This document shows, in pieces, positions 1-53,828 of a stretch of 53,828 nt of DNA. A model generated the notes under the pieces. That model did no database searches and was not told the origin of the DNA. It saw nothing but the letters and a program-made list of their open reading frames with translations. This DNA comes from Tabrizicola thermarum (GTDB taxonomy: Bacteria; Pseudomonadota; Alphaproteobacteria; Rhodobacterales; Rhodobacteraceae): contig NZ_QMJY01000072.1 of the NCBI RefSeq assembly GCF_003574395.1, positions 1-53,828 on the forward strand, given 5' to 3'. How positions within the stretch are numbered: position 1 is the first letter of the stretch; every line of letters begins with the position of its first letter. Position numbers and translations under genes: made by a program.

Positions 1-49
1 TTTGGTTGCGGGGGCAGGATTTGAACCTGCGGCCTTCAGGTTATGAGCC
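1..49 (-). other. attL core: 3' half of tRNA-Met(CAU)
   Basis: The first 49 bases are repeated exactly at the last 49 of the window. On the minus strand they read as the 3' half of a tRNA from the anticodon loop (CTCATAA, anticodon CAU) through the T arm (GGTTCAAATCC) to the acceptor end CCCCCGCAACCA. The bases that would continue the anticodon stem here (from 50 on) do not pair, so this copy is only a fragment. The rest of the tRNA must lie beyond 53828. The type of repeat is typical of integration by a tyrosine recombinase into a tRNA 3' end. Confidence 0.9.
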
Positions 50-189
50 AAAGGTGAGCGATTCCAATATCTTAGCCAGTCCAGCCACTTAGGCGGCAAG
101 CTTTTGTTTAGGCGGGGTTTTCGCCTCCGCACTCAGCCGCGTTCGCAGGCATTGACATGCAAAACAAGTGTGCAGCCCGCAGTCGCAGG

Positions 190-207
190 TTGATGTGGTG
201 TTGATGT
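190..207 (+). promoter_or_regulatory. Putative integrase arm-type sites, left
   Basis: TTGATGTGGTGTTGATGT contains two direct copies of TTGATGT spaced 11 bp, about 140 bp inside attL. The same arrangement with one base changed occurs just inside attR (53698-53715). Paired direct repeats on both sides of a core are what arm-binding sites of lambda-type integrases look like. The role is inferred. Confidence 0.55.
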
Positions 208-258
208 AGCCCACGCGCCCGCCCCGCAGATCATAATCGCAGGCCGTCTTGTCGGCCT

Positions 259-1599
259 TCATTTCCGATGCTCCCGCAGCCCAAGCTCGACCCACATCCA
301 GCCGAAATCGTATTCGGCAATCGGACCCTCGCCATGTCCGGCGCTGCGGTTCTCCAGCATCTTCAGCCACTCGATGACCTTCTCACGCCCCGCGACGGTC
401 CGGACCGCCTGGCGCGGTGACTTGCCGCCCAATGCCGGGATCGGAGCGTCCAGCGTTTCGCGGTAATGCTTGTCCAGGTGATCCCGCATGAGCTGTCGCG
501 CGATCTCGGGCGGGATTTCATCGGCCGCCTCGCTTGGCTCGTCACGCCGTTGGTCGGCCCGCATCTGCTCGACCGTCCGGATCGTGGTCAAGGGTGCCCT
601 CAGCAGATCCCCGGCGGCGGCGCCGATCAAGGTCTGGACCTTGGCCGCGCGCTCGGCCGAGTTGACAGTCACGAGCAGCGTCTTGCCCGTCAGTTCCAGC
701 GAGCCCAGAACGGTTGCGCCTTCCATCTGCGTGTCGAGCATGATGCCGCCGCCCGCCTTGCCACCACGCCCCTTGCGCGTGGCCAGCCAGTTCCAGAACT
801 TCGGCCCCTCGGGCAGGAAGCCCTTTACGCGGTCCAACCGCTCCGCCACCGCTTTCTGCGTGACGCCGGTGGCAAACGGATACCGCAGATCGTGAAACAG
901 CACATCATCGCCGTCCGAGTTGGTGAACTGCGGCTGCACCGGGGTGAGAGCACGGTCGATCTCGATGAACAGCCAGGCGGAGGTGAAGATCGGTGCGCAG
1001 CCCATCAGTTGATCGTGCGAAAGCCGCAGCGCATCCCGCTTCTTCAGCTTCAGGGCATCGCGAAGCCCGGCGAAAAGAAAATCCACCGCCTCGGCCCGGA
1101 AGGGCAACAGCGCCCCGGAGATGACATGGTGATCGCGCTCGGGCACCACCCGCACAGCGATCCGGTCCCATTGCTTCAGCGTGCGCGTGGCGGATTTCTC
1201 TTTCACCGTGACGGGTGCGGCATCCGACAGCAGGTCGCGCAGCACCATCGACGTGCCGGGCTGGACATCGCTGACTTCGTACAGACTGACCGGCGCATCC
1301 CGCAGCGCCGCGAAATAGGCCCGGTTCAGCGCCGTTTCCTTCCAGCCGCGCCGTTTCAGATAGAGATCGACGATGTTGCCGTCCTCGTAGTGCTGGCCAA
1401 GGAAATCCTCGAACCCGCAGCCCCAAAGGACGCCTGACCACTGCTCGCCCAGCAGGTCGGCCAAGCTGTCCTGATCGATCTCGAATTCCTCCAGCGCGGG
1501 CATCAGGTGTTCGGCGACAACATCCTGCAGCCGGTCGCGCCAGTCCCCTTCCCGGCCGATGAAGGCCAGAAGGCCGGAAATGTCGTTTCGTTCAGCCAT
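259..1599 (-). CDS. Unknown protein with MbcA/ParS/Xre-like C-terminus
   Basis: 446 residues, ATG preceded by a strong GAGGGG ribosome site. I do not recognise the first 370 residues. They contain the motif PGTSMVLRDLL and a repeated pattern of predicted helices. The last 60 residues (HYRETLDAPIPALGGKSPRQAV, then GREKVIEWL) resemble the toxin-binding end of MbcA/ParS/Xre antitoxins and of SEC-C-associated proteins, where an LGGKxPREAV turn precedes a helix. It is the last gene of a minus-strand cargo operon, separated from the previous gene by 81 bp that hold a 7-bp-stem hairpin (GTTTCTG/CAGAAAC). The role is unknown; a regulatory or antitoxin-like part is possible. Confidence 0.6.
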   Translation of the reverse strand: MAERNDISGLLAFIGREGDWRDRLQDVVAEHLMPALEEFEIDQDSLADLLGEQWSGVLWGCGFEDFLGQHYEDGNIVDLYLKRRGWKETALNRAYFAALRDAPVSLYEVSDVQPGTSMVLRDLLSDAAPVTVKEKSATRTLKQWDRIAVRVVPERDHHVISGALLPFRAEAVDFLFAGLRDALKLKKRDALRLSHDQLMGCAPIFTSAWLFIEIDRALTPVQPQFTNSDGDDVLFHDLRYPFATGVTQKAVAERLDRVKGFLPEGPKFWNWLATRKGRGGKAGGGIMLDTQMEGATVLGSLELTGKTLLVTVNSAERAAKVQTLIGAAAGDLLRAPLTTIRTVEQMRADQRRDEPSEAADEIPPEIARQLMRDHLDKHYRETLDAPIPALGGKSPRQAVRTVAGREKVIEWLKMLENRSAGHGEGPIAEYDFGWMWVELGLREHRK

Positions 1600-1680
1600 T
1601 GCCCCTCACTTGTCTGATCGCGCGAAACGAAGCCGAGAGTTTCTGCCCTGGGCCAGAAACCCGCAGCTTGGCATCCATTT

Positions 1681-3285
1681 CTAGGTAAGGCGCCGCTGGA
1701 GCGCCACACGATAGCTGTACGGTGCCACTTCCTCGACCGTCACCATGTCCCCGGCACAAACGCCATGCCGTTCGAAGAACTCCCGGATCCAGCCGCGCTT
1801 GCGGAAGAACTTCTTCTGACCATCGAGGTCTGTCATGACAACGGTCGCTCCGCCCCAGTCGACGGCAATTTCGCGCTGGGCGACCGAGGCACGGTTTGAT
1901 CCGCCGATCGCATCCGCCGGGAACTTCTCAAAGAAGCTCCTGAGATAGATGTGACTGTTGTCGATGTTGCCCTGTTTGATTTCGGTCGTGCCGATGTGGC
2001 GCCGCGAGTGCTGGCGCGGGATTGTGTCTGGTGACAGCAACGGTGCGGCCGGAGCCTCCCGCATAACCATCACGGTGTTGTCGTCGTCCTCGATCAGGTC
2101 GAAATCCTCGTCGTCCACAATCACAATCTGGCCCGTCGGAACCGGAGGCTGCGTGCGAACAGGCTGAACGCCTTCGGCGCGAAGGACTACCTCCGCCGCT
2201 GCGCGGGCATCCTCGCCTGCGTCATGATGCTCGAACATGAGGCCAAGATGCTGCTTCAGGCTTGCAAGGCCATGGCCGCCATTGCCCCGCAATTCGGGCC
2301 AGGCAGCCCGGGCAACGTGAACACTGTCGCGCCAGTCCCACTGCGGGACCGTCAGGCCGCAGTTGCCACAGGCCGCGGCGACGGCGCTGCGGTCAAAGCC
2401 AGAGTGCTGATAGACCGTAGCGCCGTTCAGCGCATCCCGCAGGACCGGCAGCACCTCGGCAAAGGTCGGAGCGGCCTGCACCGTGCGGGCGCTGATCCCG
2501 TGAAGGTAGGTGAACATCCAGCGATCCACCCGCGGATCGACATAGGTCACCCAAGTCTCAATTGAATTGTTGGGGCGCACGCAGGCGACGCCGATCTGGC
2601 AGATGCTGCCACGGTCGTTGTTCGCCGTCTCGACGTCCAAAGCAAAGAAGCGGAACGGGCCCTTCGGAAACGGTGTGACATTTGCCTGCCGCATGGATGC
2701 ACGCTTCGGCGCTGGCGCCGCGACGGGACCAACCATCGCGGAAAGGAAGCGCAGGCGCTGCCGTTCGATAGCCGCCTTTTCGCGAACACCCCAGCCAAGG
2801 CGGCGCAGAGTGGCCTCGACCAGATCAACCGGTTCGTCATAGGCCTGCATCCGGCGCCGGTTCCAGGCGATGGCATGATCGGGCGCGAGGGAGAGCACCT
2901 CGGCCTCCAGCCGCGCGATGTCGGCGGTGTCGGGCAAGGGAAGCCAGACAGCGCGGCAGTGATCGACGACGAATTCGTTGCGCAGTGCCTTGGCGATGTC
3001 GCCATCGGCCTTGGTCAAAGCATCCGTCCGGTCGCGCCACATCCGGCCGGTGTTGTACATGGCAGAGAAATAGTGGCTCGTGTTCTCGGACCCGGTGCGA
3101 TGGCGCTGGTGGATCCGTTCATAAAGGGTCTGTTCCCTCGAACTGGTCGAGCCGATGTAGCGAAGATCACCATGGTGATCGACGAGGCCGTAAAGGCCAC
3201 GTGCATCGCGCGGCGCCTGAACGGTCGGGCGGGGCGCCACTTCGAGCAGCGCGGAAAGCAGGTCTTCGGCAGAGAAGCGCATCAT
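1681..3285 (-). CDS. GIY-YIG / DEDDh exonuclease / B3-like fusion protein
   Basis: About 534 residues from ATG 3285 (GGAG 4-8 bp upstream; a GTG at 3300 overlapping the previous stop is the alternative). Three parts are visible. The N-terminal GIY-YIG-like nuclease has GLYGLVD, RYIGSTS, an Arg-bearing helix (YERIHQRHR) and a downstream Glu (ARLEAE). The middle part is a DnaQ-like exonuclease with FFALDVETAN, QHSGFD and HHDAGED, giving the DEDDh residues. The C-terminal 100 residues (GNIDNSHIYL, then KKFFRKRGWIREFF) look like a B3-type DNA-binding fold. DnaQ/GIY-YIG pairs occur in Cho-like repair proteins, but normally with the exonuclease first. Here the order is reversed and a DNA-binding module is added. 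Likely a DNA-processing or defence nuclease. Confidence 0.75.
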   Translation of the reverse strand: MMRFSAEDLLSALLEVAPRPTVQAPRDARGLYGLVDHHGDLRYIGSTSSREQTLYERIHQRHRTGSENTSHYFSAMYNTGRMWRDRTDALTKADGDIAKALRNEFVVDHCRAVWLPLPDTADIARLEAEVLSLAPDHAIAWNRRRMQAYDEPVDLVEATLRRLGWGVREKAAIERQRLRFLSAMVGPVAAPAPKRASMRQANVTPFPKGPFRFFALDVETANNDRGSICQIGVACVRPNNSIETWVTYVDPRVDRWMFTYLHGISARTVQAAPTFAEVLPVLRDALNGATVYQHSGFDRSAVAAACGNCGLTVPQWDWRDSVHVARAAWPELRGNGGHGLASLKQHLGLMFEHHDAGEDARAAAEVVLRAEGVQPVRTQPPVPTGQIVIVDDEDFDLIEDDDNTVMVMREAPAAPLLSPDTIPRQHSRRHIGTTEIKQGNIDNSHIYLRSFFEKFPADAIGGSNRASVAQREIAVDWGGATVVMTDLDGQKKFFRKRGWIREFFERHGVCAGDMVTVEEVAPYSYRVALQRRLT

Positions 3286-3296
3286 CAGACTCCGGA

Positions 3297-4271
3297 TCAC
3301 ATCGACATCAGCTGGCGACGTTCGATGCGCTTCCAGTCGCGCCCCGAGACAATGCCCCAGTTGCCCGCCTCGTTCGGACGGCGCCAGCGCGGCGTGGCCA
3401 TCTTCTGCAGGGCAGCGAGCGCCTCGTTGAAGGAGGGATACGAGACCTCCTCGCCCTTCGCACCGATCATGAACTTGCCGCCGCGCGCGAGACCGGGATG
3501 GAAATGGCTGCCGTCAGCGGCGACGGGGACGAAGACCACCTCGCCCGAGAAATCCGGGCTCGGCGCCTCGGGGGCAGCTTCATCCGGCTGCTGCCAGATC
3601 GAGGCAAAGAATTCCTTCCGACCCTTCAGCCACGCGGCCGCGCTGACAGCCGTCACCCGCTGGCCGACCTTTTCCAGACCACCGTCACCGCTGGACAGGA
3701 TGTTCCGAATCCGGCCTTCCGTGACGCCGCCGAACAATGCAAGCGACTGCAGGTCGACCTCGCCCGCGCCGGTGTCGATGGCGTGGCGCGAAAGAGCAAG
3801 ATTGATGATCCGGGCAATCACGCCCTGCGGCTCCGGATTCGCAAGCTGCCGGAACTGGTCAAGCTGCTGCGCCAGCGCATCAATCCAAGCCTTGCGGGCA
3901 TCGAACGGAACTTCCGCAGGAAGCACACCGTAAAGGCCGTAGATGCCCGCGTTGTCGATCAGCTTCGTGCCGCTCCAGTGCGGGGTCAGAACCGGGTCAT
4001 AAGTCTCGAACGCCTCGCGCCAGTTCGTACCTTCCACATCGGGACCATGCAGCATCGCGAACAGATGCGGCGCCACTTCCTCTGCGCCGAGGATCATCTC
4101 GATCACGCGGAAACGGCTGGCGAGAAGTTCGAGAAGCTCGGGTCCATAGTCATAGTTCTGCCGGTAGTCGATGTTGTCAGCGCTGAAGTATCCAGCCAGT
4201 TCGCGGTGGAACCAGGTCTCGCGGCGCTGTTCGGCCGTCATGGTTTCGGGGGTCAGGGCGGGCATGTTCAT
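3297..4271 (-). CDS. Unknown protein, cargo operon gene 2
   Basis: 324 residues from ATG 4271, chosen because AAGGA lies 7 bp upstream; a TTG at 4286 would add five residues. I recognise no family. It has no signal peptide or membrane segment and looks like a soluble mixed alpha/beta protein. The C-terminus (EVVFVPVAADGSHFHP, then SFNEALAAL and RRPNEAGNWGIV) looks like a small beta-rich module of the sort that reads a ligand or nucleic acid. Its stop overlaps the alternative GTG start of the nuclease fusion gene, so the two are probably translated in fixed ratio and may act together. Confidence 0.6.
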   Translation of the reverse strand: MNMPALTPETMTAEQRRETWFHRELAGYFSADNIDYRQNYDYGPELLELLASRFRVIEMILGAEEVAPHLFAMLHGPDVEGTNWREAFETYDPVLTPHWSGTKLIDNAGIYGLYGVLPAEVPFDARKAWIDALAQQLDQFRQLANPEPQGVIARIINLALSRHAIDTGAGEVDLQSLALFGGVTEGRIRNILSSGDGGLEKVGQRVTAVSAAAWLKGRKEFFASIWQQPDEAAPEAPSPDFSGEVVFVPVAADGSHFHPGLARGGKFMIGAKGEEVSYPSFNEALAALQKMATPRWRRPNEAGNWGIVSGRDWKRIERRQLMSM

Positions 4272-4282
4272 GGTTTTGTCCT

Positions 4283-4471
4283 TCAAGCGTGCAGGCGGCG
4301 GATCATGGCGCGGAGGTTGTGGCGCGCGCGGTGATCGGAGGGGGTGGATGCCGCGATGAGGAACCCTCTCTCGAAATGAAGAGCGTAGTGACGACCGCGC
4401 GGCTCGATGCCGAGCAAGTCAACACCTTCAGCACGACACAGCTGCTGATACTCTCTGACGACCTTGCGCAT
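4283..4471 (-). CDS. Small HicA-like protein
   Basis: 62 residues, basic. The core (GRHYALHFERGFLIAAS, then TPSDHRARHNLRAMIRRL) resembles the double-stranded-RNA-binding-like fold of HicA toxins and phage relatives, in which a short beta hairpin is followed by P-x-SD and a basic helix. The usual catalytic His of HicA (GSHxxF) is not obvious, so toxin activity is not claimed. First gene of the left cargo operon, starting about 35 bp after the predicted -10 box. Its stop is followed within 12 bp by the next gene's start. Confidence 0.5.
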   Translation of the reverse strand: MRKVVREYQQLCRAEGVDLLGIEPRGRHYALHFERGFLIAASTPSDHRARHNLRAMIRRLHA

Positions 4472-4482
4472 GAGGCACTATC

Positions 4483-4551
4483 CGTGAAATCATATTTGTT
4501 GCATCATGTATATCCGCCGCTCCGCGCCTTCGTCAATCACATTATTTCACG
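4483..4551. promoter_or_regulatory. Inverted repeat flanking the cargo promoter (operator)
   Basis: CGTGAAATCAT (4483-4493) and ATTATTTCACG (4541-4551) are inverted copies matching at 10 of 11 bases, placed on both sides of the promoter. A third half-site, TTCACG, follows at about 4553. Such an arrangement suggests autoregulation by a product of the operon or by a phage repressor. Confidence 0.45.
4507..4536 (-). promoter_or_regulatory. Promoter of the left cargo operon
   Basis: On the minus strand TTGACG (4531-4536) is followed after 18 bp by TATACA (4507-4512), a close match to a sigma-70 promoter. It faces the 62-residue gene, whose ATG is at 4471. This is the clearest promoter in the window and lies in a locally AT-rich stretch. 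Confidence 0.6.
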
Positions 4552-4571
4552 ATTCACGCATTTTACCTCAG

Positions 4572-4943
4572 CAACATGATGGCGCCCAAGCGAGGCCTAT
4601 GGCGAACTGTTTTTCCACGCATTTTCATGCACAAAGCCTTGCCGCCCTCAGCGGCAGAAAGCGGTGATGCGCGGCTTCACGCACCAGCCAGCCTTATCCA
4701 CAGCGTCATTCGGACCACCCCCTTGCTCCGAATCGAAGCCCACGGCAGGTTGCATCCTTGAGGAGAGCAGCCCTCAACCATAAGCATAACAGGTCTATCA
4801 GAACGGCATTCTGGCAGGGTCGAGGCGCTTTGGCGCCCTCAACGACCTTGCTACCGATCATGTTTTCCCCCGCACCGTCGTGCTGCGGGCTGCGGGTGGT
4901 TTGAGCCAAGCCGATCCTCTGTCTGAAGGAGGATGTATCGTTC
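4572..4943. other. Non-coding gap with DnaA box and hairpin
   Basis: No convincing gene. It contains a perfect DnaA box TTATCCACA at 4694-4702 and a compound hairpin at 4818-4847 (outer stem GGTCG/CGACC, inner GGCGC/GCGCC). A perfect AAGGAGG at 4926-4932 serves the next gene. The hairpin has no U-tract, so a terminator is not claimed. Confidence 0.4.
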
Positions 4944-5543
4944 ATGGGCTTGCCGCCACGCGTCTATTTCACCGTTCACGAAGTCACTGCCCGCTGGGGC
5001 TGCAACATCGCCGATGTCGCCGGATGGGCCGATGCAGGCCGGTTCCGGATCCTGACGGGCATCCCCGCCGTCCGCTGCGGCGACGATGTCGTCGCGGGAA
5101 AGGTGGTGCTGTCCCCGATGGACCTTCTGCCGCTCTTCCGCCGCTGCGGCACCGGCCCGACCGAAGGAATGATGCGCCGTATCCAGCCGATCGGGCGACA
5201 GGACTGGCTGCTCATCACGGATCCTGCTTGCGGCATACCCGTCGCCGTTGCCGACATGCTGGTTCTGGCCGAAGAGGTTCATGCCTTCGAGGAAGAGAAC
5301 GAGATGGTGCGCCGCGTGACGAGCGGGCCGGGTGCTGCCACGCCCTACGACTGGGAGGGCATGACGGTCGCCCTGATCCATCGCATCCATGAGCGGGGCC
5401 TCCCCGCCACGCAGGCCGAGCTGGTCGCCGAGATGCAGGACTGGTTTGCGGATCAGACGGACGGCCGGAAGATCCCCGACAGCCGCAGCATCCGGCGCAG
5501 GGTAACCCCGGTCTGGAAGAAGCTGCGGGGAGATGGGGCGTAA
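4944..5543 (+). CDS. Small HTH-like phage protein of unknown function
   Basis: 199 residues; AAGGAGG lies 11 bp before the ATG. The first 60 residues (YFTVHEVTARWGC, then VAGWADAGRFRI) look like a MerR/excisionase-type helix-turn-helix in which a W-bearing recognition segment is followed by a short wing. The C-terminal 70 residues (GLPATQAELVAEMQDWF, then RSIRRRVTPVWKKL) look like a second helical DNA-binding motif. It converges on the integrase gene with a 22-bp gap, so it may control excision or lysogeny. No close family is recognised. Confidence 0.55.
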   Translation: MGLPPRVYFTVHEVTARWGCNIADVAGWADAGRFRILTGIPAVRCGDDVVAGKVVLSPMDLLPLFRRCGTGPTEGMMRRIQPIGRQDWLLITDPACGIPVAVADMLVLAEEVHAFEEENEMVRRVTSGPGAATPYDWEGMTVALIHRIHERGLPATQAELVAEMQDWFADQTDGRKIPDSRSIRRRVTPVWKKLRGDGA

Positions 5544-5565
5544 AGTTGCGGCGCGACTATCTGGG

Positions 5566-6831
5566 TCACGCGGACTGGCGTCCCCCCTGCTCGTCGGCGT
5601 CATGGACCAGCCGGGGCTTCGGCCGGAAGGCGCTGGCCACGGCGTCCACACCGGCGCGCAGAGGCGAGTCCATCAGGTGGGCATAGCGCAGGGTCGTCTG
5701 CATCTGGCTGTGGCCCAGAAGCTTGCCAATCATTTCCAGCGAAGCCCCGCCGCTGACCAGAAGCGACGCAAAGGTGTGGCGCAGGTCATGGATCCGGACG
5801 TCGTGCAGCCCGCACTGCTTCTGGACCTGCGCCCAGAAGCGGCGCACCTCCTGAACCGGCTGGCCGGGCGTGTCGCCGGGAAAGAGCCACGGCGATCCCT
5901 TCGGCACCAACAGCTGCCGCTGGCGTACGATGGCGGCCGTCTCGTCCGAGATCGGCACGCGGTGGGCGCGGCGCTGTTTCGTCATGGTGGGCGGCTTCGA
6001 CCAGCTCATGTGTTCGAGGTTGAACTGCTCGAACCGGGCCTGCCGCACCTCGCCCAGCCGGGCGCCGGTCAGCATGCACATGCGGATGATGTCGGCCGCG
6101 CGCCGGTCCTCGGCCGCATCCAGCGCGGCGGCAAGCTTGGCGATCTCTTCCTTGGAGAGAAAGCGTTCGCGCGGCGTCTCGGTGCGGCGATGGAAGCGCT
6201 GGGCGGGGTTGTCTTCGCACCAGCCCCACTGGACCGCCAGCGTGAACATCTTGCGCAACACCTCGCCGATCCGGTTGGCACGCACCGGCGTGGGCTTGGC
6301 ACCCTGCAGCTTGCGCGCCCGGTTGTTGGGCTTTTCCTTGTGGGGCCGCGCCCTGCCCTCGGCGATCTTCGCCAGCAGCTTGTCGACGTCGGTCGGCGTG
6401 ATTTCCGTCACCAGCTTCCGGCCCCAGACCGGTTCCACCATCTTGGCCAGCGCCGACCGCTGATCGGCCGCGCTGCGTTCGGCCAGTTTCGGCAGATGCT
6501 CGGCGCAGTAGCGGTCGATCAGGTCGGTCACGCGCGGGGCTTCGCGCTTTGCTTCGCGCTGGCCTAAGGGATCGGCCCCGGCGTCGATCTCGCGCCGCAG
6601 TTCCTTGGCCCGCTCCCGCGCCGCCGACACCGACCATTCCGGCCAGCGCCCGAAGGTCATCCGGCGCTGGCGCCCGGCATGGCGGTAATCCAGCGTGAAG
6701 GCCCGCCCGCCGCCGCGATAGATGCAGACGGCAAAGCCCCGGACGTCGGTGTCGAAAATCTGGTAGTCCCGCCCCGGCACCGGCTCGGCGTCGCGCAGCA
6801 CCTTCTCGGTCAGCTTGATGCGTTCGGGCAT
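5566..6831 (-). CDS. int: Tyrosine recombinase (phage integrase)
   Basis: 421 residues from ATG 6831 (MPERIKLTEK, the usual start for this family); ATG 6858 is an alternative. Order: N-terminal DUF4102-type arm-binding domain (ITPTDVDK is at its end), SAM-like core-binding domain, C-terminal catalytic domain. Catalytic residues are visible: Arg in TGARLGEV, His-x-x-Arg in HDLRHTFAS, His in LLGHSQ and the Tyr nucleophile in TLRYAHL. It should recombine the 49-bp tRNA core. Unusually for a prophage, it lies 5.5 kb from the nearer att site, with the cargo operon in between. Confidence 0.95.
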   Translation of the reverse strand: MPERIKLTEKVLRDAEPVPGRDYQIFDTDVRGFAVCIYRGGGRAFTLDYRHAGRQRRMTFGRWPEWSVSAARERAKELRREIDAGADPLGQREAKREAPRVTDLIDRYCAEHLPKLAERSAADQRSALAKMVEPVWGRKLVTEITPTDVDKLLAKIAEGRARPHKEKPNNRARKLQGAKPTPVRANRIGEVLRKMFTLAVQWGWCEDNPAQRFHRRTETPRERFLSKEEIAKLAAALDAAEDRRAADIIRMCMLTGARLGEVRQARFEQFNLEHMSWSKPPTMTKQRRAHRVPISDETAAIVRQRQLLVPKGSPWLFPGDTPGQPVQEVRRFWAQVQKQCGLHDVRIHDLRHTFASLLVSGGASLEMIGKLLGHSQMQTTLRYAHLMDSPLRAGVDAVASAFRPKPRLVHDADEQGGRQSA

Positions 6832-6905
6832 GGCTTCGGTCCTTCTTGCATCCGACATGAGGCGTGGTTTCGCCTGGTTATCAAGGCAAGCATGGCGCCT
6901 CGGAT

Positions 6906-6971
6906 GGCGGGGAGGCAGAGGGTGGCAGGAAGGACGCCCGAGCCGTGCCACCCCTTGTTTTCATGGGATTT
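6906..6971 (+). repeat. Left arm of a 66-bp imperfect inverted repeat
   Basis: This stretch matches the reverse complement of 7267-7332 at 53 of 66 positions, with an uninterrupted 17-base block GTGCCACCCCTTGTTTT. It lies immediately upstream of the integrase start, in the intergenic control region. Confidence 0.7.
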
Positions 6972-7266
6972 CGGCGCTGGGCGGATCGATGCGCGACTGG
7001 CGACGACAGGCGCAATGTGACGTGTGAAAGGGCAAGCACGGTCGTCGCGCTGCAGATCCGGCATTCAACGAACCGCAGAGCGACAAATCCTCAAGGAATT
7101 CAATGGGTGGCAGGGGTGCCGTGTCGGGTGCCACCCCCTCTTTGCCCATCAATGCCGGACAAACACGGTCAATCCGGCTGTTCGCTGGTGGTTGCGGCCT
7201 TGGTGTCCGTTTCGTCCATCTGGCAGGACTGGCCGTAATTTCCCCACGCCATCCGACCACCATCGC

Positions 7267-7332
7267 AAATCCCAACAAAACAAGGGGTGGCACAAAGGCG
7301 GCATCCTTTCCGCCACCCTCCGCCTCGCCGCC
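7267..7332 (-). repeat. Right arm of a 66-bp imperfect inverted repeat
   Basis: Inverted partner of 6906-6971. Between the arms (about 295 bp) there is no gene, but GGGTGGCA and TGCCACCC occur again at 7105-7135. Divergent int and early genes flank the structure, so it may be the immunity or excision control region, or a MITE-like insertion. Confidence 0.7.
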
Positions 7333-7405
7333 ACCCCGCGGGCTCTGCGCTCACTGGTCCCTGCAAGACGTCCCCGATCTTCGGGGCCAGGACCAGGAGA
7401 CCCCG

Positions 7406-7663
7406 ATGCCGCATCTCGGATCGATGCCAGACCCGAAGGACAAACCCCGCAGCCTGCTGGTCGGCTGGATCAGCCGCCTCGACCTTGCGCTGGAACTCGG
7501 CCTTTCGGTCGACACGCTGCGCCGCTGGGAGGCGATGCGGACGGGCCCACCCTGTGTTCGGGCCGGACGCAAGGTCTACTACCGTCGCGCAGCTGTCGAG
7601 GAATGGCTGGAGGAGCAGGAGCAGGCCGCCCCGCGCCGCCGTCGTGCCGGAGGGCGCCGGTAA
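7406..7663 (+). CDS. Helix-turn-helix protein, excisionase/AlpA-like
   Basis: 85 residues from ATG 7406 with AGGAGA 6 bp upstream. Residues 20-70 form a MerR/excisionase-type motif (LALELGLSVDTLRRWEAMRTGPP, then KVYYRRAAVEEWLEEQ) that ends with the typical YY-R-x-V-W-L wing. The tail is basic. First gene of the rightward early operon, opposite int, as expected for an excisionase or early regulator. It overlaps the next start by one base (TAATG). Confidence 0.8.
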   Translation: MPHLGSMPDPKDKPRSLLVGWISRLDLALELGLSVDTLRRWEAMRTGPPCVRAGRKVYYRRAAVEEWLEEQEQAAPRRRRAGGRR

Positions 7664-7902
7664 TGACGATCCAGTCCCGCACATCCGCCTGGCCCGCCGA
7701 CCGCGTGGCCGAGGCGCGCGCCGTGATCGCCGACGTTGCGCATCACAGCGATCTCCTGATCCGGCTCGCCTGCAATGTGCTCGCCCAGCATGGCGAGACC
7801 CCGGGCGAGTGCGCCGATGCCCAGCGCCTGCTGGTAGTCGTCGACGCTCGACGCCCCGTTCGGCGCGCCCAGCGCGAGGATCAGGGGAGGGCCGCACGAT
7901 GA
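7663..7902 (+). CDS. Small phage protein, unknown
   Basis: 79 residues, ATG overlapping the previous stop. Mostly helical (VAEARAVIADVAHHSDLLIRLACNVL) with a basic tail. No family recognised. It is tightly packed between the HTH gene and the VRR-NUC gene (ATGATG overlapping its stop), so it is likely expressed with the early operon. Confidence 0.6.
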   Translation: MTIQSRTSAWPADRVAEARAVIADVAHHSDLLIRLACNVLAQHGETPGECADAQRLLVVVDARRPVRRAQREDQGRAAR

Positions 7903-8294
7903 TGCGCCGTGGTACCCCCGAGGCTGATTTGCAGCGCACGGTCGTACAGGCGCTCCGCATCGCCCTGCCCCGCACTGCCATCATCCACCACTGCGCCAAC
8001 GAGGTCACCGAGGCCGGGCCCCGCGGGGCAAAGCGCCAGGCAATCCTCGTCGGCATGGGCGTCCATGCCGGGTTCGCTGACCTGATGGTGATTTGCGACG
8101 GCCGGGTCCTGTTCCTCGAGCTAAAGGCACCGAAGGGGCGGCTGCGGCCGGAGCAGGAGGCGTTCCGCGATGCGGTGCAGGCGCAGGGGTTCGGCTGGGC
8201 GCTGGTGCGCAGTCTCGACGACGCGCTGGGCGCGCTGGCGGATCACGGCTTCACCACGCGCATCGCGCCCGGCCCGCGGAGGCCCGAGCCATGA
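7899..8294 (+). CDS. VRR-NUC domain nuclease
   Basis: 131 residues. The whole protein is a VRR-NUC fold of the PD-(D/E)xK superfamily: Glu in PEADLQRTVVQAL, GMGVHAGFADLMV with the catalytic Asp, then FLELKAPKGRL with the E-x-K and QxxF in EQEAFRDAVQAQG. Small phage VRR-NUC proteins are thought to act on branched or recombining DNA in replication or packaging. Here it sits directly before the replication gene and overlaps its ATG by 4 bp. Confidence 0.9.
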   Translation: MMRRGTPEADLQRTVVQALRIALPRTAIIHHCANEVTEAGPRGAKRQAILVGMGVHAGFADLMVICDGRVLFLELKAPKGRLRPEQEAFRDAVQAQGFGWALVRSLDDALGALADHGFTTRIAPGPRRPEP

Positions 8295-11052: not shown

Positions 11053-11181
11053 AATGGTGCCGATGAGACGAGGCTGCGCGCACAGCCGATAACGCCGTCC
11101 GCACAGCTTTGGGATGCAAAACGATCGAAACCTCTTTAGGTTAGCCGCAATCGTCGCCAACCCGAAGGTTTCCGTTTGTCC
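11053..11181. other. Leader of the restriction-modification operon
   Basis: Non-coding. It holds two small hairpins (AACCT-CTTT-AGGTT at 11129-11142 and AACC-CGAA-GGTT near 11160) and a run of lower GC. A promoter for the following operon is expected here, but I cannot fix its boxes. Confidence 0.35.
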
Positions 11182-14100
11182 ATGTCCGATTCCCTGCGTG
11201 ATCTTGTCCTTGCCCATATTCCCGAAGACGGCTCTGCCATCGGCAATGGCGCCCTGCTCGCGCGGCTGCGGGAAACCCTGCCCGATCTGACGGACGAGGA
11301 CTATGCCGCAGCCAAGGACGCGCTGGTGGACGAAGGCATCATTGGCAAGGGCAAGGGGCGCGGCGGGTCGGTGTTTCTGATCACCGACGACGCTGACGAG
11401 GACGAAGATCAGGACGACGATTTCGAACTGACACCCACCGAGGAACCCGCCCCAAGGGCCAGGCGCGCGGCGGCCAAGACCAAGGCCGCGCCGCGCAAGT
11501 CGGGGGAACCCGCGCAGGTCATCAGCTATCGCCACACCGACACGCGGGTGAACAACCCCGAGGTCGGCATGGTCCACCCCGACAACGACCCCGACCAGCC
11601 GAAAACCGTCTGGGCCTATGACCCGCACCTTGACCCGGCGCTGATGTTCGACAGCCGGCGCGCCCGGGTGGAGAGATTGATCGACGATGCGCTGGCCTCG
11701 GGTGATGCCGTCACCATGCGCGACACGCTGGAAGAACTGAAGCGGCTGCAGGCGCCCTATCTGAACTGGGCGGGCAAGGCGGAACGGACGAGTTTCGAGG
11801 TCGATACGGTATCCCTGCATGTCCACGAGCGGGTGGATCCGGCGACGATCCTGGCCAATGCGAGGAAGCGGCTGAAGGGCGAGGCGAAGGCGGCCGAGGT
11901 CTGGCGCCAGGCCGATCTGTTCGCCGCCCCGTTCGAGAACCTGCCGCTGCGGCAGGCGCTGGATTTCTACCACCACGAAAAGGGCTGGTCGAACCGGCTG
12001 ATCGCGGGCGACAGCCTGCTGGTGATGAACTCGCTGTTGCAGAAAGAGGCGATGGCGGGACGGGTGCAGATGATCTACATCGACCCGCCCTATGGCATCA
12101 AATACGGGTCGAACTTTCAGCCCTTCACCAACAAGCGCGACGTGAAGGACGGCGCGGATGACGACCTGACCCAGGAACCCGAGATGATCAAGGCGTTCCG
12201 GGATACCTGGGAACTGGGCATCCATTCCTACCTGACCTATCTGCGCGACCGGCTGTGGCTGGCCAAGGACCTGCTGCATGAGAGCGGGTCGGTGTTCGTG
12301 CAGATTTCGGATGAGAACCTGCACCATGTGCGGGAGCTGCTTGATGAGGTCTATGGCCCTAGCAATTTAGTCAGCGTGATTACGTTCAAGAAAACGACGG
12401 GCGCAGGCAGCCCAACTGGCGGCACAAATGTGCTGGCAGCAACGAACGATTATATCATCTGGTATGCGAAAGACCTTTCACGGGTCAAATATCGTCAGCT
12501 TTACCTTTCGCGGGGTGGAGAAGGCTGGGTCAATTACAACTATATCCGGGCCATAAACGGCGAATTTCGAAGGATGAGTAAAGACGAAGCCTCGGATTGG
12601 TCGGCATTGCCGAAGGAAGCTGAGGTCTATCGACGGGACAATCTCACTTCGACTTCTTCTGCCGGGGAAGCTGCAAACCCCTTCGCCTTTCAGGGAGTGA
12701 GCTACTCTCCTCATCCTGGAGGCTGGAAAACATCGGCCAACCCCGGGCTTCAACGCTTGCTGCGCTCCGAGAGAATGGAGGCGTATGGCAAAACGCTTGC
12801 GTACAGACGCTTTGCTACAGATTTCCCGTGGTTCAAGATAACGAACCTATGGGACGACACAGTTACAGGAGGCTTTGCAGAAGATCGCCACTATGTCGTC
12901 CAGACCGGCGCGAAAGTCGTTGAACGTTGCATGCTCATGACCACGGACCCCGGCGATCTGGTGCTTGATCCGACCTGCGGCTCGGGCACCACCGCTTTCG
13001 TGGCCGAGAAGTGGGGCCGTCGCTGGATCACCTGCGACACCAGCCGCGTGGCGATCACGCTGGCGAAGCAGCGCCTGATGACCGCAAGTTTCGATTACTT
13101 CCGCCTCGCCTATCCGCATGAGGGGCTGAAGGGCGGCTTCGTCTATCAGACGGCGCCGCACATCATGCTGCAGTCGATCGCCAACAACCCTGACATCGAC
13201 ACGATCTACGACGCCAAACACCCCGCCATCGTCACAGCGCTAACGGCGCTGAACGCCACCCTTTCCACCGCCCCGCCCTTCCGCCCCACCCAAGGCGCGC
13301 GCAAGGGCAAGCCCGTCACCTTCACCAAAGGCGAGCGGCTGGAGGAATGGGAGGTGCCGTTTGACCTGCCCGACGACTGGCCCGCCGCCGCCGCCGAACC
13401 CTTCGCCGCCTTCCACGCCGCGCGTCAGGCCATGCAGGCCGCGATGGATGCCTCGATCCGCGCCCATGCCGATCAGGAAACCCTCTATGACAAGCCCGAG
13501 GTGGACAAGACCCGCCTGCGCATCACCGGCCCGTTTAGCGTCGAGGCCGTGCCCGCGCCATCGGTCCTGTCGCTTGACGATGTGACCGCCCCCGACCAGG
13601 CCGATGCGACAGTCGCGCGGTCGGGCGAAACCTCGCGCCAGACGCAATGGCGCGACGAACTCGTGCGCACCGGCCTGCGCGCCAAGGGTGGCGCCGTTCT
13701 GAGGATCACCGATCTGCAGGTCGCCCCCGGCCTGTCGCATATCCATGCCACAGGATCGGTCGCCGAGACGGGCGAGACGATTGCGGTCAGCTTTGGCCCT
13801 GAACATGCCGCGCTGGAGCAACGCCAAGTCGAGCGCGCCATCGAAGATGCGCAGAAGCTGGTCCCGAAGCCGAAGTTCGTGGTGTTCTGCGCCTTCACCT
13901 TCGACCCCGAGGCCGCCAAGGACATCGACGAGATGCAATGGCCGGGCGTGACCCTGCTGAAGGCGCAGATGAACACCGACCTGCTGACCGAGGATCTGAA
14001 GAAAGCGAGATCGTCGAACCAGAGCTTCTGGCTGATGGGCCAGCCCGAGGTGGAATGCCGCAAGCGCGCCGACGGGATGTTCGAGGTCGAAGTGCTGGGT

Positions 14101-14415
14101 TTCGACTATTTCGACCCGCGAACGGGCAAGCTTGAGGGCGGCTCGACGAAGAACATCGCCATGTGGTCGCTGGACACCGACTATGACGGGCGCAGCCTGA
14201 TGCCGCATCAGGTATTCTTCCCCATGGCCGGGGCCAAGGACGGCTGGAACCGCCTGAAGAAGACGATCCGCGCCGAGCTGGACGAAGATCTGCTGGAGCA
14301 GTTCCACGGCACGGTGTCGCTGCCCTTCGAGGCGGGCGACCAGCGCCGCGTGGCGGTGAAGATCGTCGATGACCGGGGGATCGAAAGCCTCAAGATCATC
14401 GCGCTGGGGGCGTGA
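11182..14415 (+). CDS. Type III-like Mod: adenine DNA methyltransferase with N-terminal winged helix
   Basis: 1077 residues from ATG 11182 (a TTG two codons earlier is possible). Residues 1-70 are a winged-helix-like domain, followed by a strongly acidic then basic linker (DADEDEDQDDDFE, then RRAAAKTKAAPRK). The methylase core has motif IV YIDPPYG, then motif I DPTCGSGTTAFVAE, the order of the beta class to which type III Mod proteins belong. Between them lies the target-recognition part (roughly 12355-12900), which is AT-richer than the rest. The C-terminal 350 residues are needed for the Res partner in this family. The Res gene starts 3 bp after its stop. Confidence 0.9.
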   Translation: MSDSLRDLVLAHIPEDGSAIGNGALLARLRETLPDLTDEDYAAAKDALVDEGIIGKGKGRGGSVFLITDDADEDEDQDDDFELTPTEEPAPRARRAAAKTKAAPRKSGEPAQVISYRHTDTRVNNPEVGMVHPDNDPDQPKTVWAYDPHLDPALMFDSRRARVERLIDDALASGDAVTMRDTLEELKRLQAPYLNWAGKAERTSFEVDTVSLHVHERVDPATILANARKRLKGEAKAAEVWRQADLFAAPFENLPLRQALDFYHHEKGWSNRLIAGDSLLVMNSLLQKEAMAGRVQMIYIDPPYGIKYGSNFQPFTNKRDVKDGADDDLTQEPEMIKAFRDTWELGIHSYLTYLRDRLWLAKDLLHESGSVFVQISDENLHHVRELLDEVYGPSNLVSVITFKKTTGAGSPTGGTNVLAATNDYIIWYAKDLSRVKYRQLYLSRGGEGWVNYNYIRAINGEFRRMSKDEASDWSALPKEAEVYRRDNLTSTSSAGEAANPFAFQGVSYSPHPGGWKTSANPGLQRLLRSERMEAYGKTLAYRRFATDFPWFKITNLWDDTVTGGFAEDRHYVVQTGAKVVERCMLMTTDPGDLVLDPTCGSGTTAFVAEKWGRRWITCDTSRVAITLAKQRLMTASFDYFRLAYPHEGLKGGFVYQTAPHIMLQSIANNPDIDTIYDAKHPAIVTALTALNATLSTAPPFRPTQGARKGKPVTFTKGERLEEWEVPFDLPDDWPAAAAEPFAAFHAARQAMQAAMDASIRAHADQETLYDKPEVDKTRLRITGPFSVEAVPAPSVLSLDDVTAPDQADATVARSGETSRQTQWRDELVRTGLRAKGGAVLRITDLQVAPGLSHIHATGSVAETGETIAVSFGPEHAALEQRQVERAIEDAQKLVPKPKFVVFCAFTFDPEAAKDIDEMQWPGVTLLKAQMNTDLLTEDLKKARSSNQSFWLMGQPEVECRKRADGMFEVEVLGFDYFDPRTGKLEGGSTKNIAMWSLDTDYDGRSLMPHQVFFPMAGAKDGWNRLKKTIRAELDEDLLEQFHGTVSLPFEAGDQRRVAVKIVDDRGIESLKIIALGA

Positions 14416-14418
14416 GGG

Positions 14419-17250
14419 ATGGAAAGGCCGAAGTCCCTGATCATCAACTCGCCCTTCGTCTGCCCGGCCCAGCATTGGGTCGAGGGTCAGGGCGGGAAGC
14501 TGGAAATCAAGCCCGAACGCCGCCCCGCGAGTTACGAGGTGATCGACTCGCGCAACAACACCAAGCGGGTGGAAACGCTCGACCTGGTGAACACGATCCG
14601 CGGCCGGGTGGATGCCTGGCGCGCGGCAGGCTGGCCCGGCATCACCATCGTCACGCGCAGGCTGCTGGAACACTGGCACGACCGGACCGAGGGCATCCGG
14701 CCCTATCCGTTCTACTTTTGCCAATTGGAAGCGATCGAGACCCTGATCTGGTGGGTCGAAGGGGCGCAGGAATTCAAGCAGGGGATCGTCATTCCGGGCG
14801 ATGGCGGCCAGTGGGAACGGCTCTGCAACAAGATGGCGACCGGGTCGGGCAAGACCACGGTCATGTCCATGATCATCACCTGGCAGGTGCTGAACGCGCT
14901 GACCTATCCGAAGCGGAACAAGGATTTCTCGCGCGCGATCTTCATCGTGGCACCGGGGCTGACGGTGAAGGAGCGGCTGCAGGTGCTGATGCCCAGCGAG
15001 GGCAGTTATTACGACGAGTTCAATCTGTGCCCGTCTGAGGCGATGCGCCAGAAGCTGAACCAGGCCGAGGTGCGGATCGAGAACTGGCACACGCTGATGC
15101 CCGCGGCCGAGCCGAAACGGTCGGTCGTGAAGAAGGGCGCTGAGTCCGACGAGGCCTTTACCCGGCGCGTGCTGGGCAAGCTGGCGGCGCACAAGGACAT
15201 CGTGGTGATCAACGACGAAGCGCACCACGCCTATCGCAAACCCGCCGAGGTGAAGATCAGCAAGAAAGTGGCCGCGGAACAGGGGATCGACCTGGACGAG
15301 GCGACGCGCTGGATCGAGGGGCTGGATCGACTGCACAAGACCCGCCGCATCCAGCGATGCTTCGACCTGTCCGCCACCCCCTTTGCTCCGACAGGCAAGG
15401 CCAGCACCGACACCGCGCTGTTCGACTGGATCGTCTCGGATTTCGGGCTGAACGACGCGATCGAGGCCGGGCTGGTAAAGACGCCACGCGTCGTCGTCAG
15501 GGATGACGCGATGCCCGACAGCGCGACCCTCAGGTCAAAGCTCTACCACATCTACCGCGATCCCTCGGTGTCCGAGGACCTGAACCGCGCCAAGGCCGAG
15601 CCGCACGAGCCTCTGCCAAAGCTGGTGCAGGACGCCTATACCCTGCTGGGCGCCGACTGGCGAGAAACCCGGCGCCAGTGGGCCGAGGCAGGACACCACT
15701 CACCGCCCGTGATGCTGACTGTCTGCAACCGGACGGAGACCGCTGCCAGGATCGAGCACTACTTCAATCAGGGCGACGTGCATTGGCAGGAACTGTCCTC
15801 GCCCACGCAGACCCTTCGCGTCGATTCACGGGTGCTCGAGAAGGCCGAGGTCGGGGAGACCGCCACGGCCGACAAGGGCTATGAGGAGCGGTTGCAAGGG
15901 ATCGTGGACGCGGCGCGGATCCCGGAGACCCGGAAGGATCGGCTGAAGGCTCTCAAAAAAGAGGAGCTTCTGCGCGAGATTGTCGACAACGTCGGCAAGC
16001 GCGGCAGCGCCGGGCAGGACCTGCAAAAGGTGATCTCTGTCGCCATGCTTTCCGAGGGATGGGACGCGAAGAACGTCACCCACATCATGGGGCTCAGGGC
16101 GTTCACCTCACAGCTGCTCTGCGAACAGGTCATCGGGCGCGGCCTTCGGCGTGTGACCTATGACACCGACGAAAATGGTTTGTTCTGCCCTGAATACGTC
16201 AACGTCTTCGGCGTACCGCTGTCGATTTACGAACCGGCCGAGGGGGGCGAGGCACCGCCGCCACCGAAGCCATCGACCCAGATCGATGTGATCCCGGAAC
16301 GGGCGGAATTCGAACTGCGATGGCCGAACGTGCTGCGGATCGAAACCGTGGTGAAGCCAGTTCTGACAGTCGACTGGAGTACCGTCGATCTGCTGACCCT
16401 CGACCCGGCAGCCACAGCAATCTCAACAGAACTTGCGCCCGCGCTAGGCGGCGCAACGGACATTAGCAAGGTCCGAAACATCGACCTCGCTTCGCTGCCC
16501 GAGGGATTCCGGCTGCAACGGCTGACTTTCGTTGCTGCGCGAAAAGCCTTCTCGACGTTGAAGGGCAGCTTCAAGGGTAACGAGGAATACCTCCTGCTGC
16601 AGCTGATCCGTCTGGTCGAAACCTTCCTCGCCAGTGGCAAGGTAGATATCCCATCGCTGTTCCACACAGACCCGATCCGCCGCCGCGTGCTGATCGCGCT
16701 GAACATCGACAACGTGGTTCAACACCTGATGCGATTCGTCACCATCCAGAACACCACGGAACTGACACCCGTCTTCGACGAGGAAAACCCCATCGGCAGC
16801 ACCGGCCAGATGCGCCCGTGGTACACGACGAAGCCCAACTTCCCGACCATCAAGTCCCATATCAGCCACGTCGTCGGGGACTCGGCCTGGGAAGGCTATG
16901 CCGCCAACGTCTTCGAGACACGGGACGAAGTGGTTTCCTTCGCCAAGAACGATCACCTTGGCTTCCAGATCCACTACCTCTGGCAAGGGTCGCGGCGGCG
17001 CTACGTACCGGATTTCATCCTGCGCCTCAGGAACGGCGTTACGCTCGCGCTCGAGATCAAGGGGGTCGACAGCCCACAGAACAAGGCCAAACGCGCTGCA
17101 CTGGCGGAGTGGGTGAGTGCAATCAACGCTGCCAGCGGCTTCGGCACCTGGGCCTGGGACGTCGCCTTCGAGGCGGCGCAGGTGCATGATATCGTTTCGA
17201 AGCACACATCAGGGACAGGCCCGGCTGCAAAACACGAGGCATTCGCTTGA
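14419..17250 (+). CDS. Type III-like Res: DEAD/DEAH helicase-nuclease
   Basis: 943 residues. Helicase motifs are present: Walker A MATGSGKTTV, motif II NDEAHHAYR, motif III DLSATPFAPTG and motif VI QVIGRGLRRV. The C-terminus has a PD-(D/E)xK nuclease, YVPDFILRLRNG then LALEIKG. It resembles the Res subunits annotated as BPTD_3080-family restriction endonucleases. With Mod it should translocate on DNA and cut unmodified sequence. The protein ends ATTCGCTTGA, where the next gene's TTG overlaps the stop. Confidence 0.9.
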   Translation: MERPKSLIINSPFVCPAQHWVEGQGGKLEIKPERRPASYEVIDSRNNTKRVETLDLVNTIRGRVDAWRAAGWPGITIVTRRLLEHWHDRTEGIRPYPFYFCQLEAIETLIWWVEGAQEFKQGIVIPGDGGQWERLCNKMATGSGKTTVMSMIITWQVLNALTYPKRNKDFSRAIFIVAPGLTVKERLQVLMPSEGSYYDEFNLCPSEAMRQKLNQAEVRIENWHTLMPAAEPKRSVVKKGAESDEAFTRRVLGKLAAHKDIVVINDEAHHAYRKPAEVKISKKVAAEQGIDLDEATRWIEGLDRLHKTRRIQRCFDLSATPFAPTGKASTDTALFDWIVSDFGLNDAIEAGLVKTPRVVVRDDAMPDSATLRSKLYHIYRDPSVSEDLNRAKAEPHEPLPKLVQDAYTLLGADWRETRRQWAEAGHHSPPVMLTVCNRTETAARIEHYFNQGDVHWQELSSPTQTLRVDSRVLEKAEVGETATADKGYEERLQGIVDAARIPETRKDRLKALKKEELLREIVDNVGKRGSAGQDLQKVISVAMLSEGWDAKNVTHIMGLRAFTSQLLCEQVIGRGLRRVTYDTDENGLFCPEYVNVFGVPLSIYEPAEGGEAPPPPKPSTQIDVIPERAEFELRWPNVLRIETVVKPVLTVDWSTVDLLTLDPAATAISTELAPALGGATDISKVRNIDLASLPEGFRLQRLTFVAARKAFSTLKGSFKGNEEYLLLQLIRLVETFLASGKVDIPSLFHTDPIRRRVLIALNIDNVVQHLMRFVTIQNTTELTPVFDEENPIGSTGQMRPWYTTKPNFPTIKSHISHVVGDSAWEGYAANVFETRDEVVSFAKNDHLGFQIHYLWQGSRRRYVPDFILRLRNGVTLALEIKGVDSPQNKAKRAALAEWVSAINAASGFGTWAWDVAFEAAQVHDIVSKHTSGTGPAAKHEAFA

Positions 17251-40415: not shown

Positions 40416-40515
40416 GATTTTCCCATGATGGTGTGGATGGCTCCTCCCCCCAACGGCATCGCAATGTGCCATGCTGGTAGTGTCATCGACCAACAAAGGA
40501 ACGGGAGCCATCCAC

Positions 40516-53779: not shown

Positions 53780-53828
53780 TTTGGTTGCGGGGGCAGGATT
53801 TGAACCTGCGGCCTTCAGGTTATGAGCC
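53780..53828 (-). tRNA. attR: 3' half of tRNA-Met(CAU), gene continues beyond the window
   Basis: Identical to bases 1-49. On the minus strand the tRNA's 5' half must lie to the right of the window, so this is the copy that belongs to the functional gene. C-rich acceptor end CCCCCGCAACCA and anticodon loop CTCATAA suggest initiator tRNA-Met; the missing 5' half would confirm it. Confidence 0.85.

What the first reader, a model, noticed from the sequence alone, without database searches (positions are those of the whole stretch)
1681..4471. Left-end cargo operon around a GIY-YIG/DEDDh/B3-like fusion nuclease
Four genes read as one unit from a strong promoter, lie between attL and int, and include a three-domain protein whose order (GIY-YIG first, exonuclease second, DNA-binding last) differs from Cho-like proteins, plus two unknown proteins and a HicA-like one. 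Position at a prophage end and tight coupling are marks of a defence or anti-competitor system. I know of no described system with this set. Basis: motifs are seen; system role is inferred.
Basis: partly seen in the sequence, partly recalled or inferred. Interest (0 to 1): 0.72.

Follow-up and report, generated by a model that had tools for sequence, protein, structure and literature searches.

The report
Swappable prophage defence cassette with nuclease
Three linked bacterial genes at the end of a dormant virus, one of them a nuclease with two cutting domains and a DNA-recognition domain, look like an undescribed immunity cassette, because sister viruses carry a retron-type gene pair or other cargo in the same slot.

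Summary
The three-domain protein is real: GIY-YIG, then DEDDh exonuclease, then a B3-like domain, with key residues kept in 30 or 31 of 31 aligned sequences. The unit is three genes, not four: HicA-like P0004, helical/HTH protein P0003 and nuclease P0002, tightly packed, under purifying selection, and kept in this order in 20 of 44 loci, P0003 at 39-96% identity. P0001 is a neighbouring anchor gene. In three sister prophages window 1-1599 and 4695 onward align at 81-94%, while 1600-4694 is replaced by a retron-type RT plus XRE gene (two) or an unrelated gene pair (one): the layout of known phage-borne anti-phage hotspots. At least 9 of 28 other P0002 loci have defence-model matches within five genes, but a small control makes this only suggestive (p 0.07 to 0.19). 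The prophage also carries McrBC-like and Mod-like genes. Best reading: an undescribed restriction-like anti-phage cassette whose recognition domains move between nuclease and partner. No activity has been shown; trigger and self-protection are unknown. No PADLOC 2023 system matches the set.

The parts
1..49 (-). att copy, 3' end of tRNA-Met (direct repeat with 53780-53828)
259..1599 (-). P0001, 446 aa, weak MbcA/ParS-type C-terminus (below Pfam cut-off); att-proximal anchor gene, not part of the cassette
1600..4694 (.). replaceable cassette slot between P0001 and P0005
   Evidence: blastn against L178, L184 and L186: 1-1599 and about 4695 onward align, the interval does not
1681..3300 (-). P0002, 539 aa, GIY-YIG + DEDDh + B3-like nuclease
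2791..3276 (-). GIY-YIG domain of P0002 (residues 9-170)
   Evidence: tblastn match of residues 9-187 to an annotated GIY-YIG protein, E 4e-25
2167..2658 (-). DEDDh 3'-5' exonuclease domain of P0002 (residues 215-378)
1684..2007 (-). B3-like DNA-binding domain of P0002 (residues 432-539), called D2 here
   Evidence: Foldseek E 1.6e-3 to the NGA1 B3 domain; stand-alone copy in L049
3297..4286 (-). P0003, 329 aa, helical N-terminus + HTH + C-terminal domain D1
3591..3839 (-). HTH region of P0003 (residues 150-232)
3312..3539 (-). D1 domain of P0003 (residues 250-325), found in place of B3 in P0002 of 4 loci and fused to XRE on E. coli plasmids
4283..4471 (-). P0004, 62 aa, HicA-like, His28 invariant in 16 rows
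4472..4694 (.). non-coding region upstream of P0004, inside the cassette; 52.9% G+C against 65.7% for the window
4944..5543 (+). P0005, phrog_13283; inner anchor gene of the slot
5566..6951 (-). P0006, tyrosine integrase
53780..53828 (-). second att copy

Best explanation
P0004-P0003-P0002 is one cargo of a prophage anti-phage hotspot and works like a methyltransferase-free restriction system. P0002 is the effector: its B3 domain (in other copies D1) binds the target DNA, the GIY-YIG domain nicks or cuts it, and the DEDDh domain degrades from the new 3' ends. P0003 is the DNA-binding partner: its HTH autoregulates the operon, and its D1 domain recognises the same kind of target, which is why D1 can stand in for B3 in P0002. 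P0004 is a HicA-like ribonuclease held in check by P0003 and serves as a fail-safe or second arm. Shown: domains, catalytic residues, gene order, selection, slot replacement. Inferred: DNA as target, autoregulation, the toxin-antitoxin relation, phage as trigger, and how self DNA is spared. My estimates: defence cargo 0.8; DNA-cleaving restriction-like action 0.45; toxin-antitoxin-like P0004/P0003 pair 0.35.
For: Replacement of 1600-4694 in three sister prophages whose flanks align at 81-94%, twice by the same gene pair: an RT similar to retron Ec86/Ec67 RTs (E 3e-9 to 2e-8) and an XRE gene, 98% and 100% alike between L178 and L186. Catalytic residues in 31 of 31 rows, E132 in 30 of 31. dN/dS 0.04-0.18 in 17 pairwise comparisons of the three genes. 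In the family sample all five genomes with a strong P0003 match (E below 1e-100, of 394 searched, the window's own included) have P0002 beside it and P0004 at least in part. Defence-model matches (E 1e-50 or better) within five genes of P0002 in at least 9 of 28 loci. B3-like folds occur in restriction enzymes (LlaJI.R1; EcoRII and BfiI recalled). In 4 of 5 plasmid regions that I opened, a P0003-type gene lies beside a DUF4258-like gene, and in one also next to a gene annotated as GIY-YIG nuclease. DUF4258 is listed among BECR-fold toxin families, activity unknown (PMC11980606, passages).
Against: No activity shown. The control for defence neighbours is small, and its listing shows at least one such region of 14 (p 0.07; 0.19 if two). 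Several P0002 copies stand without P0003, some with only a D1 piece, so P0003 is not always needed or those copies are decaying. Six loci in five genomes hold a more distant P0003-like protein without P0002 or P0004 in the DNA fetched. The HicA match is weak (hhalign probability 24%, E 8e-4 for a single comparison). GIY-YIG is below Pfam's cut-off (E 0.32). The B3 matches do not reach E 0.001. No self-protection gene is in the operon.
Confidence: 0.55

Rival explanations
1. Abortive infection by a toxin-antitoxin pair: P0004 is the main effector (an RNase), P0003 its antitoxin and sensor, and P0002 only clears DNA or is an added module.
For: P0004-type or DUF4258-like small genes lie beside many P0003-type genes; P0004 has His28 in 16 of 16 rows and dN/dS 0.04-0.16.
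Against: P0002 persists where P0003 is missing or reduced to a piece (L027, L028, L039, L046) and in L128 where P0004 has an internal stop. By eye, the six distant P0003-like loci show no small toxin-like neighbour.
Confidence: 0.18
2. A phage-serving operon: regulation of lysogeny, DNA repair or recombination, or exclusion of related phages without nuclease action on invaders.
Against: Sister prophages do without it and carry other cargo in the slot. Full-length P0002 was found in viral contigs only in this prophage, plus one fragment. P0003 matched 1 of 50,697 phage records, and only in D1. Only 8 of the 44 genome loci have a P0005 relative in the DNA fetched; whether the others lie in other prophages was not tested.
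Confidence: 0.1
3. A selfish, homing-like cassette that uses its GIY-YIG nuclease to spread and gives the host nothing.
For: GIY-YIG is common in homing enzymes (recalled; also PMC1564403, search listing); distribution is patchy (both nuclease domains in 9 of 394 genomes).
Against: By eye the neighbours differ from locus to locus, though no shared target was searched for; the slot is shared with unrelated cargo; homing does not explain P0003 and P0004.
Confidence: 0.07

Closest known systems
[quoted passage not shown] 2022, PMC9122126, passages)
   Same: A small locus (about 1-5 kb) of high turnover between two conserved phage genes; here about 3.1 kb between P0001 and P0005, with a retron-type RT pair as one alternative.
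   Different: A different prophage lineage, mostly in Rhodobacterales, integrated at tRNA-Met. Among the 18 IMG/VR loci gene-called (several from one contig) only the window's own holds this cassette; 8 of 44 genome loci also hold it with P0005.
GIY-YIG type IV restriction enzymes: CMoRE (PMC12923530, abstract) and wH-GIY-YIG (PMC11037411, passages)
   Same: A GIY-YIG nuclease joined to a DNA-sensing domain.
   Different: CMoRE is single-component and the wH-GIY-YIG enzymes are fusions of those two domains; here a DEDDh exonuclease is added, the third domain is B3-like or D1, and two partner genes are present.
SNIPE (PMC13190303, passages)
   Same: Anti-phage protein with a GIY-YIG nuclease domain.
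   Different: Membrane-anchored with DUF4041; P0002 has DEDDh and B3 instead.
Cho/UvrC-type and PRK07883 DEDD-GIY-YIG proteins (arrangement recalled; PRK07883 matched only in the exonuclease)
   Same: Contain GIY-YIG and/or DEDD domains.
   Different: Order reversed (from recall), and the match is confined to DEDD, far below the family cut-off (51.9 against 454 bits).
HicAB toxin-antitoxin
   Same: P0004 residues 6-56 align with a HicA profile, conserved His on His.
   Different: No HicB match; the partner P0003 is a 329-aa HTH/D1 protein.

Membership tests
Prophage anti-phage hotspot cargo | Variable cargo between the same two conserved phage genes | tested here: met
   L178, L184 and L186 align on both sides of 1600-4694 but not inside
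Prophage anti-phage hotspot cargo | Alternative cargo includes a known kind of defence gene | tested here: met
   RT similar to retron Ec86/Ec67 with an XRE gene in L178 and L186; the ncRNA was not sought
Anti-phage defence system | Protects cells from phage | not testable with these tools
   needs plaque assays
Known PADLOC 2.0 system | Full-length match of each protein to one system's models | tested here: not met
   P0002 matched only in the DEDDh region, P0004 a HicA-like model, P0001, P0003 and P0005 nothing at E 1
Type II restriction-modification | Cognate methyltransferase in the operon | tested here: not met
   none of the three cassette genes matches a methyltransferase
Type IV (modification-dependent) restriction | Cuts only modified DNA | not testable with these tools
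   needs biochemistry
GIY-YIG nuclease superfamily | GIY and YIG tyrosines, conserved Arg, Glu, Asn | tested here: met
   Y37, Y48, R62, N147 in 31 of 31, E132 in 30 of 31; UvrC match E 0.022; Pfam below cut-off
DEDDh exonucleases | Five catalytic residues and DnaQ fold | tested here: met
B3 / EcoRII-N-like DNA-binding domain | Fold match | tested here: met
   several B3 structures in Foldseek, E 1.6e-3 to 1.1e-2, prob 1.00, TM by target 0.54-0.65; none at 0.001 or better, and none among the 50 VIA-align rows, which the exonuclease fills
HicAB toxin-antitoxin | HicA fold with active His | tested here: inconclusive
   hhalign probability 24%, E 8e-4, His aligned; no Pfam hit
HicAB toxin-antitoxin | Adjacent HicB antitoxin | tested here: not met
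   P0003 has no HicB match in Pfam, PADLOC, PHROGs or NCBIfam at the limits used

The most novel reading that the evidence does not exclude
A new immune family in which a nuclease with endo- and exonuclease active sites and its regulator carry interchangeable target-recognition domains (B3, D1), so that one recognition module sets both expression and cutting, with a HicA-like toxin wired in as a fail-safe: a fusion of restriction and toxin-antitoxin logic spread by prophages of Rhodobacterales and relatives.
Probability: 0.28. Interest if true: 0.78.

Novelty: new variant of a known kind. Interest (0 to 1): 0.6.

Why it matters
It adds a testable candidate immune system with an unusual nuclease layout, and a prophage hotspot with anchors (P0001 and P0005/int, at tRNA-Met) that can be mined for further systems. 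The movement of D1 between P0003 and P0002 makes it possible to ask how such systems exchange target recognition.

Tried and rejected
Four-gene operon: rejected, because P0001 is present without the other three in L178, L184, L186 and L188, and P0001 relatives occur on 148 plasmid records.

Phage-gene reading: searching viral contigs with P0003 gave only this prophage; A1 gave 22 loci: full length only here, one fragment, and 20 with matches in the exonuclease range; P0004 gave no phage record at E 0.01.

A third shared C-terminal domain (P0002 of L034, P0003-like of L022): suggested by eye; BLASTP E 0.009 over 38 residues, so only a lead.

Toxin pairing for all P0003-like proteins: not general. 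Six loci of a distant subfamily (L120-L125) show no small toxin-like gene next to P0003 by eye, and of five plasmid regions opened one has none.

Defence enrichment: 225 of 231 called neighbour genes from 28 loci (6 small ones dropped) against 113 of 140 control genes (27 not given; 14 of the 16 fetched regions covered, L153 only in part). The first Fisher test used 16 regions by mistake (p 0.05); corrected to 14 it is 0.07, and 0.19 if the control holds two such regions. The control positions were round numbers picked by hand, in genomes that had matched A4. The bulk scans do not say which protein carries a hit; that is known only for 25 proteins I chose to scan singly, so 9 of 28 is a minimum and the two sides were not counted alike.

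Literature: no paper on this gene set in nine searches; the library lacks most subscription papers.
Full report
What is there. The window is a whole contig (G000:C65) ending on both sides in the same 49-base repeat, the 3' end of tRNA-Met; the complete tRNA gene sits at the end of contig C53. IMG/VR lists a contig of the same length, 53828 bases, as a viral genome, with a 100% match to P0003. On the minus strand lie P0004 (4471-4283, 62 aa), P0003 (4286-3297, 329 aa), P0002 (3300-1681, 539 aa) and, after an 81-base gap, P0001 (1599-259, 446 aa). P0005 (phrog_13283) and a tyrosine integrase follow on the other side.

P0003 and P0004. P0003 has a helical N-terminus, an HTH and a C-terminal domain of about 75 residues, D1 (model pLDDT 80.6; no usable PDB match). 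D1 stands in place of B3 in P0002 of L033, L036, L037 and L046 (4 of the 31 rows of A1). In L036 the D1 of P0002 is closest to the D1 of its own P0003 (77%), as if copied within the operon; in L033 and L037 it is closer to other P0002 D1 domains. D1 is also fused to an XRE domain on E. coli plasmids, and B3 of this type occurs alone in a Bradyrhizobium operon with helicase, WYL, ATPase and DUF1156 genes. P0004 is HicA-like (PADLOC E 9.3e-7; hhalign 24%, E 8e-4), with His28 in 16 of 16 rows.

Conservation. One genome scan with P0002 gave 44 loci. P0003 with all three parts lies directly upstream in 22 of 44 (L018 cut by the contig end), and P0004 before it in 20 of those 22; in L018 the contig ends first, in L015 about 400 bases are visible without it, and in L017 it is split over two frames. 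Most of these loci are from Rhodobacterales by their record titles; L015 is Asticcacaulis. Of 19 loci without full P0003 that I examined (17 genome loci and plasmid loci L046 and L048), 2 have an HTH relative with another C-terminus and 5 a D1 piece just before P0002, one of them (L016) at a contig end and so undecided. In the reverse direction, 12 of 394 family genomes match P0003 at E 1e-10; the five strong ones, the window's own included, have P0002 beside it and P0004 at least in part, P0002 being interrupted in G070 and G303; five genomes hold six distant P0003-like loci with neither; two match only in D1. All three genes show dN/dS 0.04-0.18 (17 comparisons). P0002 with both nuclease domains occurs in 9 of 394 genomes. 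The P0002 tree does not group orders cleanly, which agrees with transfer but does not prove it.

The slot. With P0005 and P0006 as queries I fetched prophage relatives from IMG/VR. In L178 the window's 1-1599 and 4695-8000 align at 94%, in L184 at 89% and 88%, in L186 1-1599 at 88% and 4695-6069 (to the end of the locus) at 81%; the interval 1600-4694 aligns in none of them. L178 carries a 303-aa RT, similar to retron Ec86 and Ec67 RTs (E 3e-9 to 2e-8), and a 102-aa XRE-like protein. L186 carries the same pair (98% and 100% protein identity) although its flanks have diverged more from the window's. L184 and L188 carry a 533-aa plus 318-aa pair (95% and 91% alike). L179 has P0001 (58%) and P0005 with no called gene between. 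L182 lacks P0001 and has a 522-aa AAA protein weakly like retron PtuA. Conversely L003 shares 1673-8000 but not P0001, so the P0001 place varies too. The cassette is thus a self-contained, replaceable unit of three genes plus 223 upstream bases. This matches the description of phage hotspots (about 1-5 kb between two conserved genes; PMC9122126, passages).

Defence context. Within five genes of P0002 in other genomes single scans gave, at E 1e-50 or better, PD-Lambda-2_B (L007), type I MTase (L014), MzaB and MzaC (L017), ZacC (L018), E1-E2 (L019), a DpdF-like helicase match (L023), PDC-S37 (L027), type II MTase (L036) and a type I REase (L043). The gene before P0002 in L034 matches an HNH model (E 1.8e-18), and its relative lies next to P0002 in L023 (cluster c51). 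Eleven of the 25 singly scanned proteins gave no match at the limits used. Bulk scans of 225 neighbour genes matched 316 and 166 PADLOC families at E 1e-10; 113 control genes matched 56, including a cytosine methylase; one protein can match many families. By locus this is at least 9 of 28 against 1 or 2 of 14, p 0.07 to 0.19: supportive, not decisive. A match to one component is not a complete system. The prophage itself bears McrB- and McrC-like genes at its other end and a Mod-like methyltransferase.

Toxin lead. On plasmids of Azospirillum TSA2s, Roseomonas, Skermanella and Rhizobium, P0003-type genes lie beside a small gene resembling DUF4258. Pfam's cut-off is passed only in Rhizobium; Azospirillum and Roseomonas are weaker, and Skermanella is linked only by similarity to the others. 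The fifth region, Azospirillum TSH58, shows no such gene. In Azospirillum TSA2s the next gene is annotated as a GIY-YIG nuclease (no Pfam match at 0.1), near DUF4007 and cysteine desulfurase genes. DUF4258 is listed among BECR-fold toxin families, activity unknown (PMC11980606, passages). I read this as P0003-type proteins pairing with small RNase-like proteins, and with a GIY-YIG nuclease, in more than one lineage.

Verdict. The evidence for defence cargo is good; the mechanism is inferred. I find no described system with this set in PADLOC 2023 or in nine paper searches. I place it as a new variant of a known kind: a restriction-like immune cassette of a prophage hotspot.

Noticed in passing
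window 49388-53514, minus strand: McrC-like (49388-50872) and McrB-like (50704-53514) genes at the other end of the same prophage.
   Followed up: partly
window 11176-18884, plus strand: Mod-like adenine methyltransferase, then a 943-aa protein that looks by eye like a DEAD-type helicase (no PDB match at 0.001) and a 545-aa protein: possibly a type III-like restriction cassette.
   Followed up: partly
L178 2721-3937 and L186 5960-7176: The same retron-type RT plus XRE pair (98% and 100% protein identity) in the slot of two prophages with more diverged flanks, as expected of exchanged cargo; its ncRNA was not looked for.
   Followed up: partly
L184 2217-4761 and L188 3743-6287: A 533-aa plus 318-aa gene pair of unknown function in the same slot; the 318-aa protein looks nuclease-like by eye.
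   Followed up: no
L050 5764-7276: E. coli plasmid XRE-D1 protein followed by a 292-aa protein that looks like a PD-(D/E)XK nuclease by eye; all 26 Escherichia rows listed (of 73 Escherichia records) are annotated as helix-turn-helix regulators.
   Followed up: partly
L049 5911-6339: Stand-alone B3 domain like P0002's, in a Bradyrhizobium plasmid operon with helicase, WYL, ATPase and DUF1156 genes.
   Followed up: partly
L131 3206-4541: A DEDDh-only relative with D1 in an adjoining frame (G226), a further case of D1 next to this exonuclease type.
   Followed up: no
L122, L123, L124: Distant P0003-like genes on stretches that share a 427-446-aa gene and a 142-146-aa gene that looks XRE-like by eye.
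   Followed up: no
L128 7303-9084: P0004 relative with an internal stop directly before an open P0002, P0003 missing.
   Followed up: yes
L004: Record titled Exiguobacterium profundum (MAG) holds a Paracoccus-like copy of the locus (91% for P0002); probably a mislabelled MAG.
   Followed up: no
window 32777-33769 (minus) and 40471-41535 (plus): Two ORFs that look by eye like IS5- and IS110-type transposases inside the prophage.
   Followed up: no
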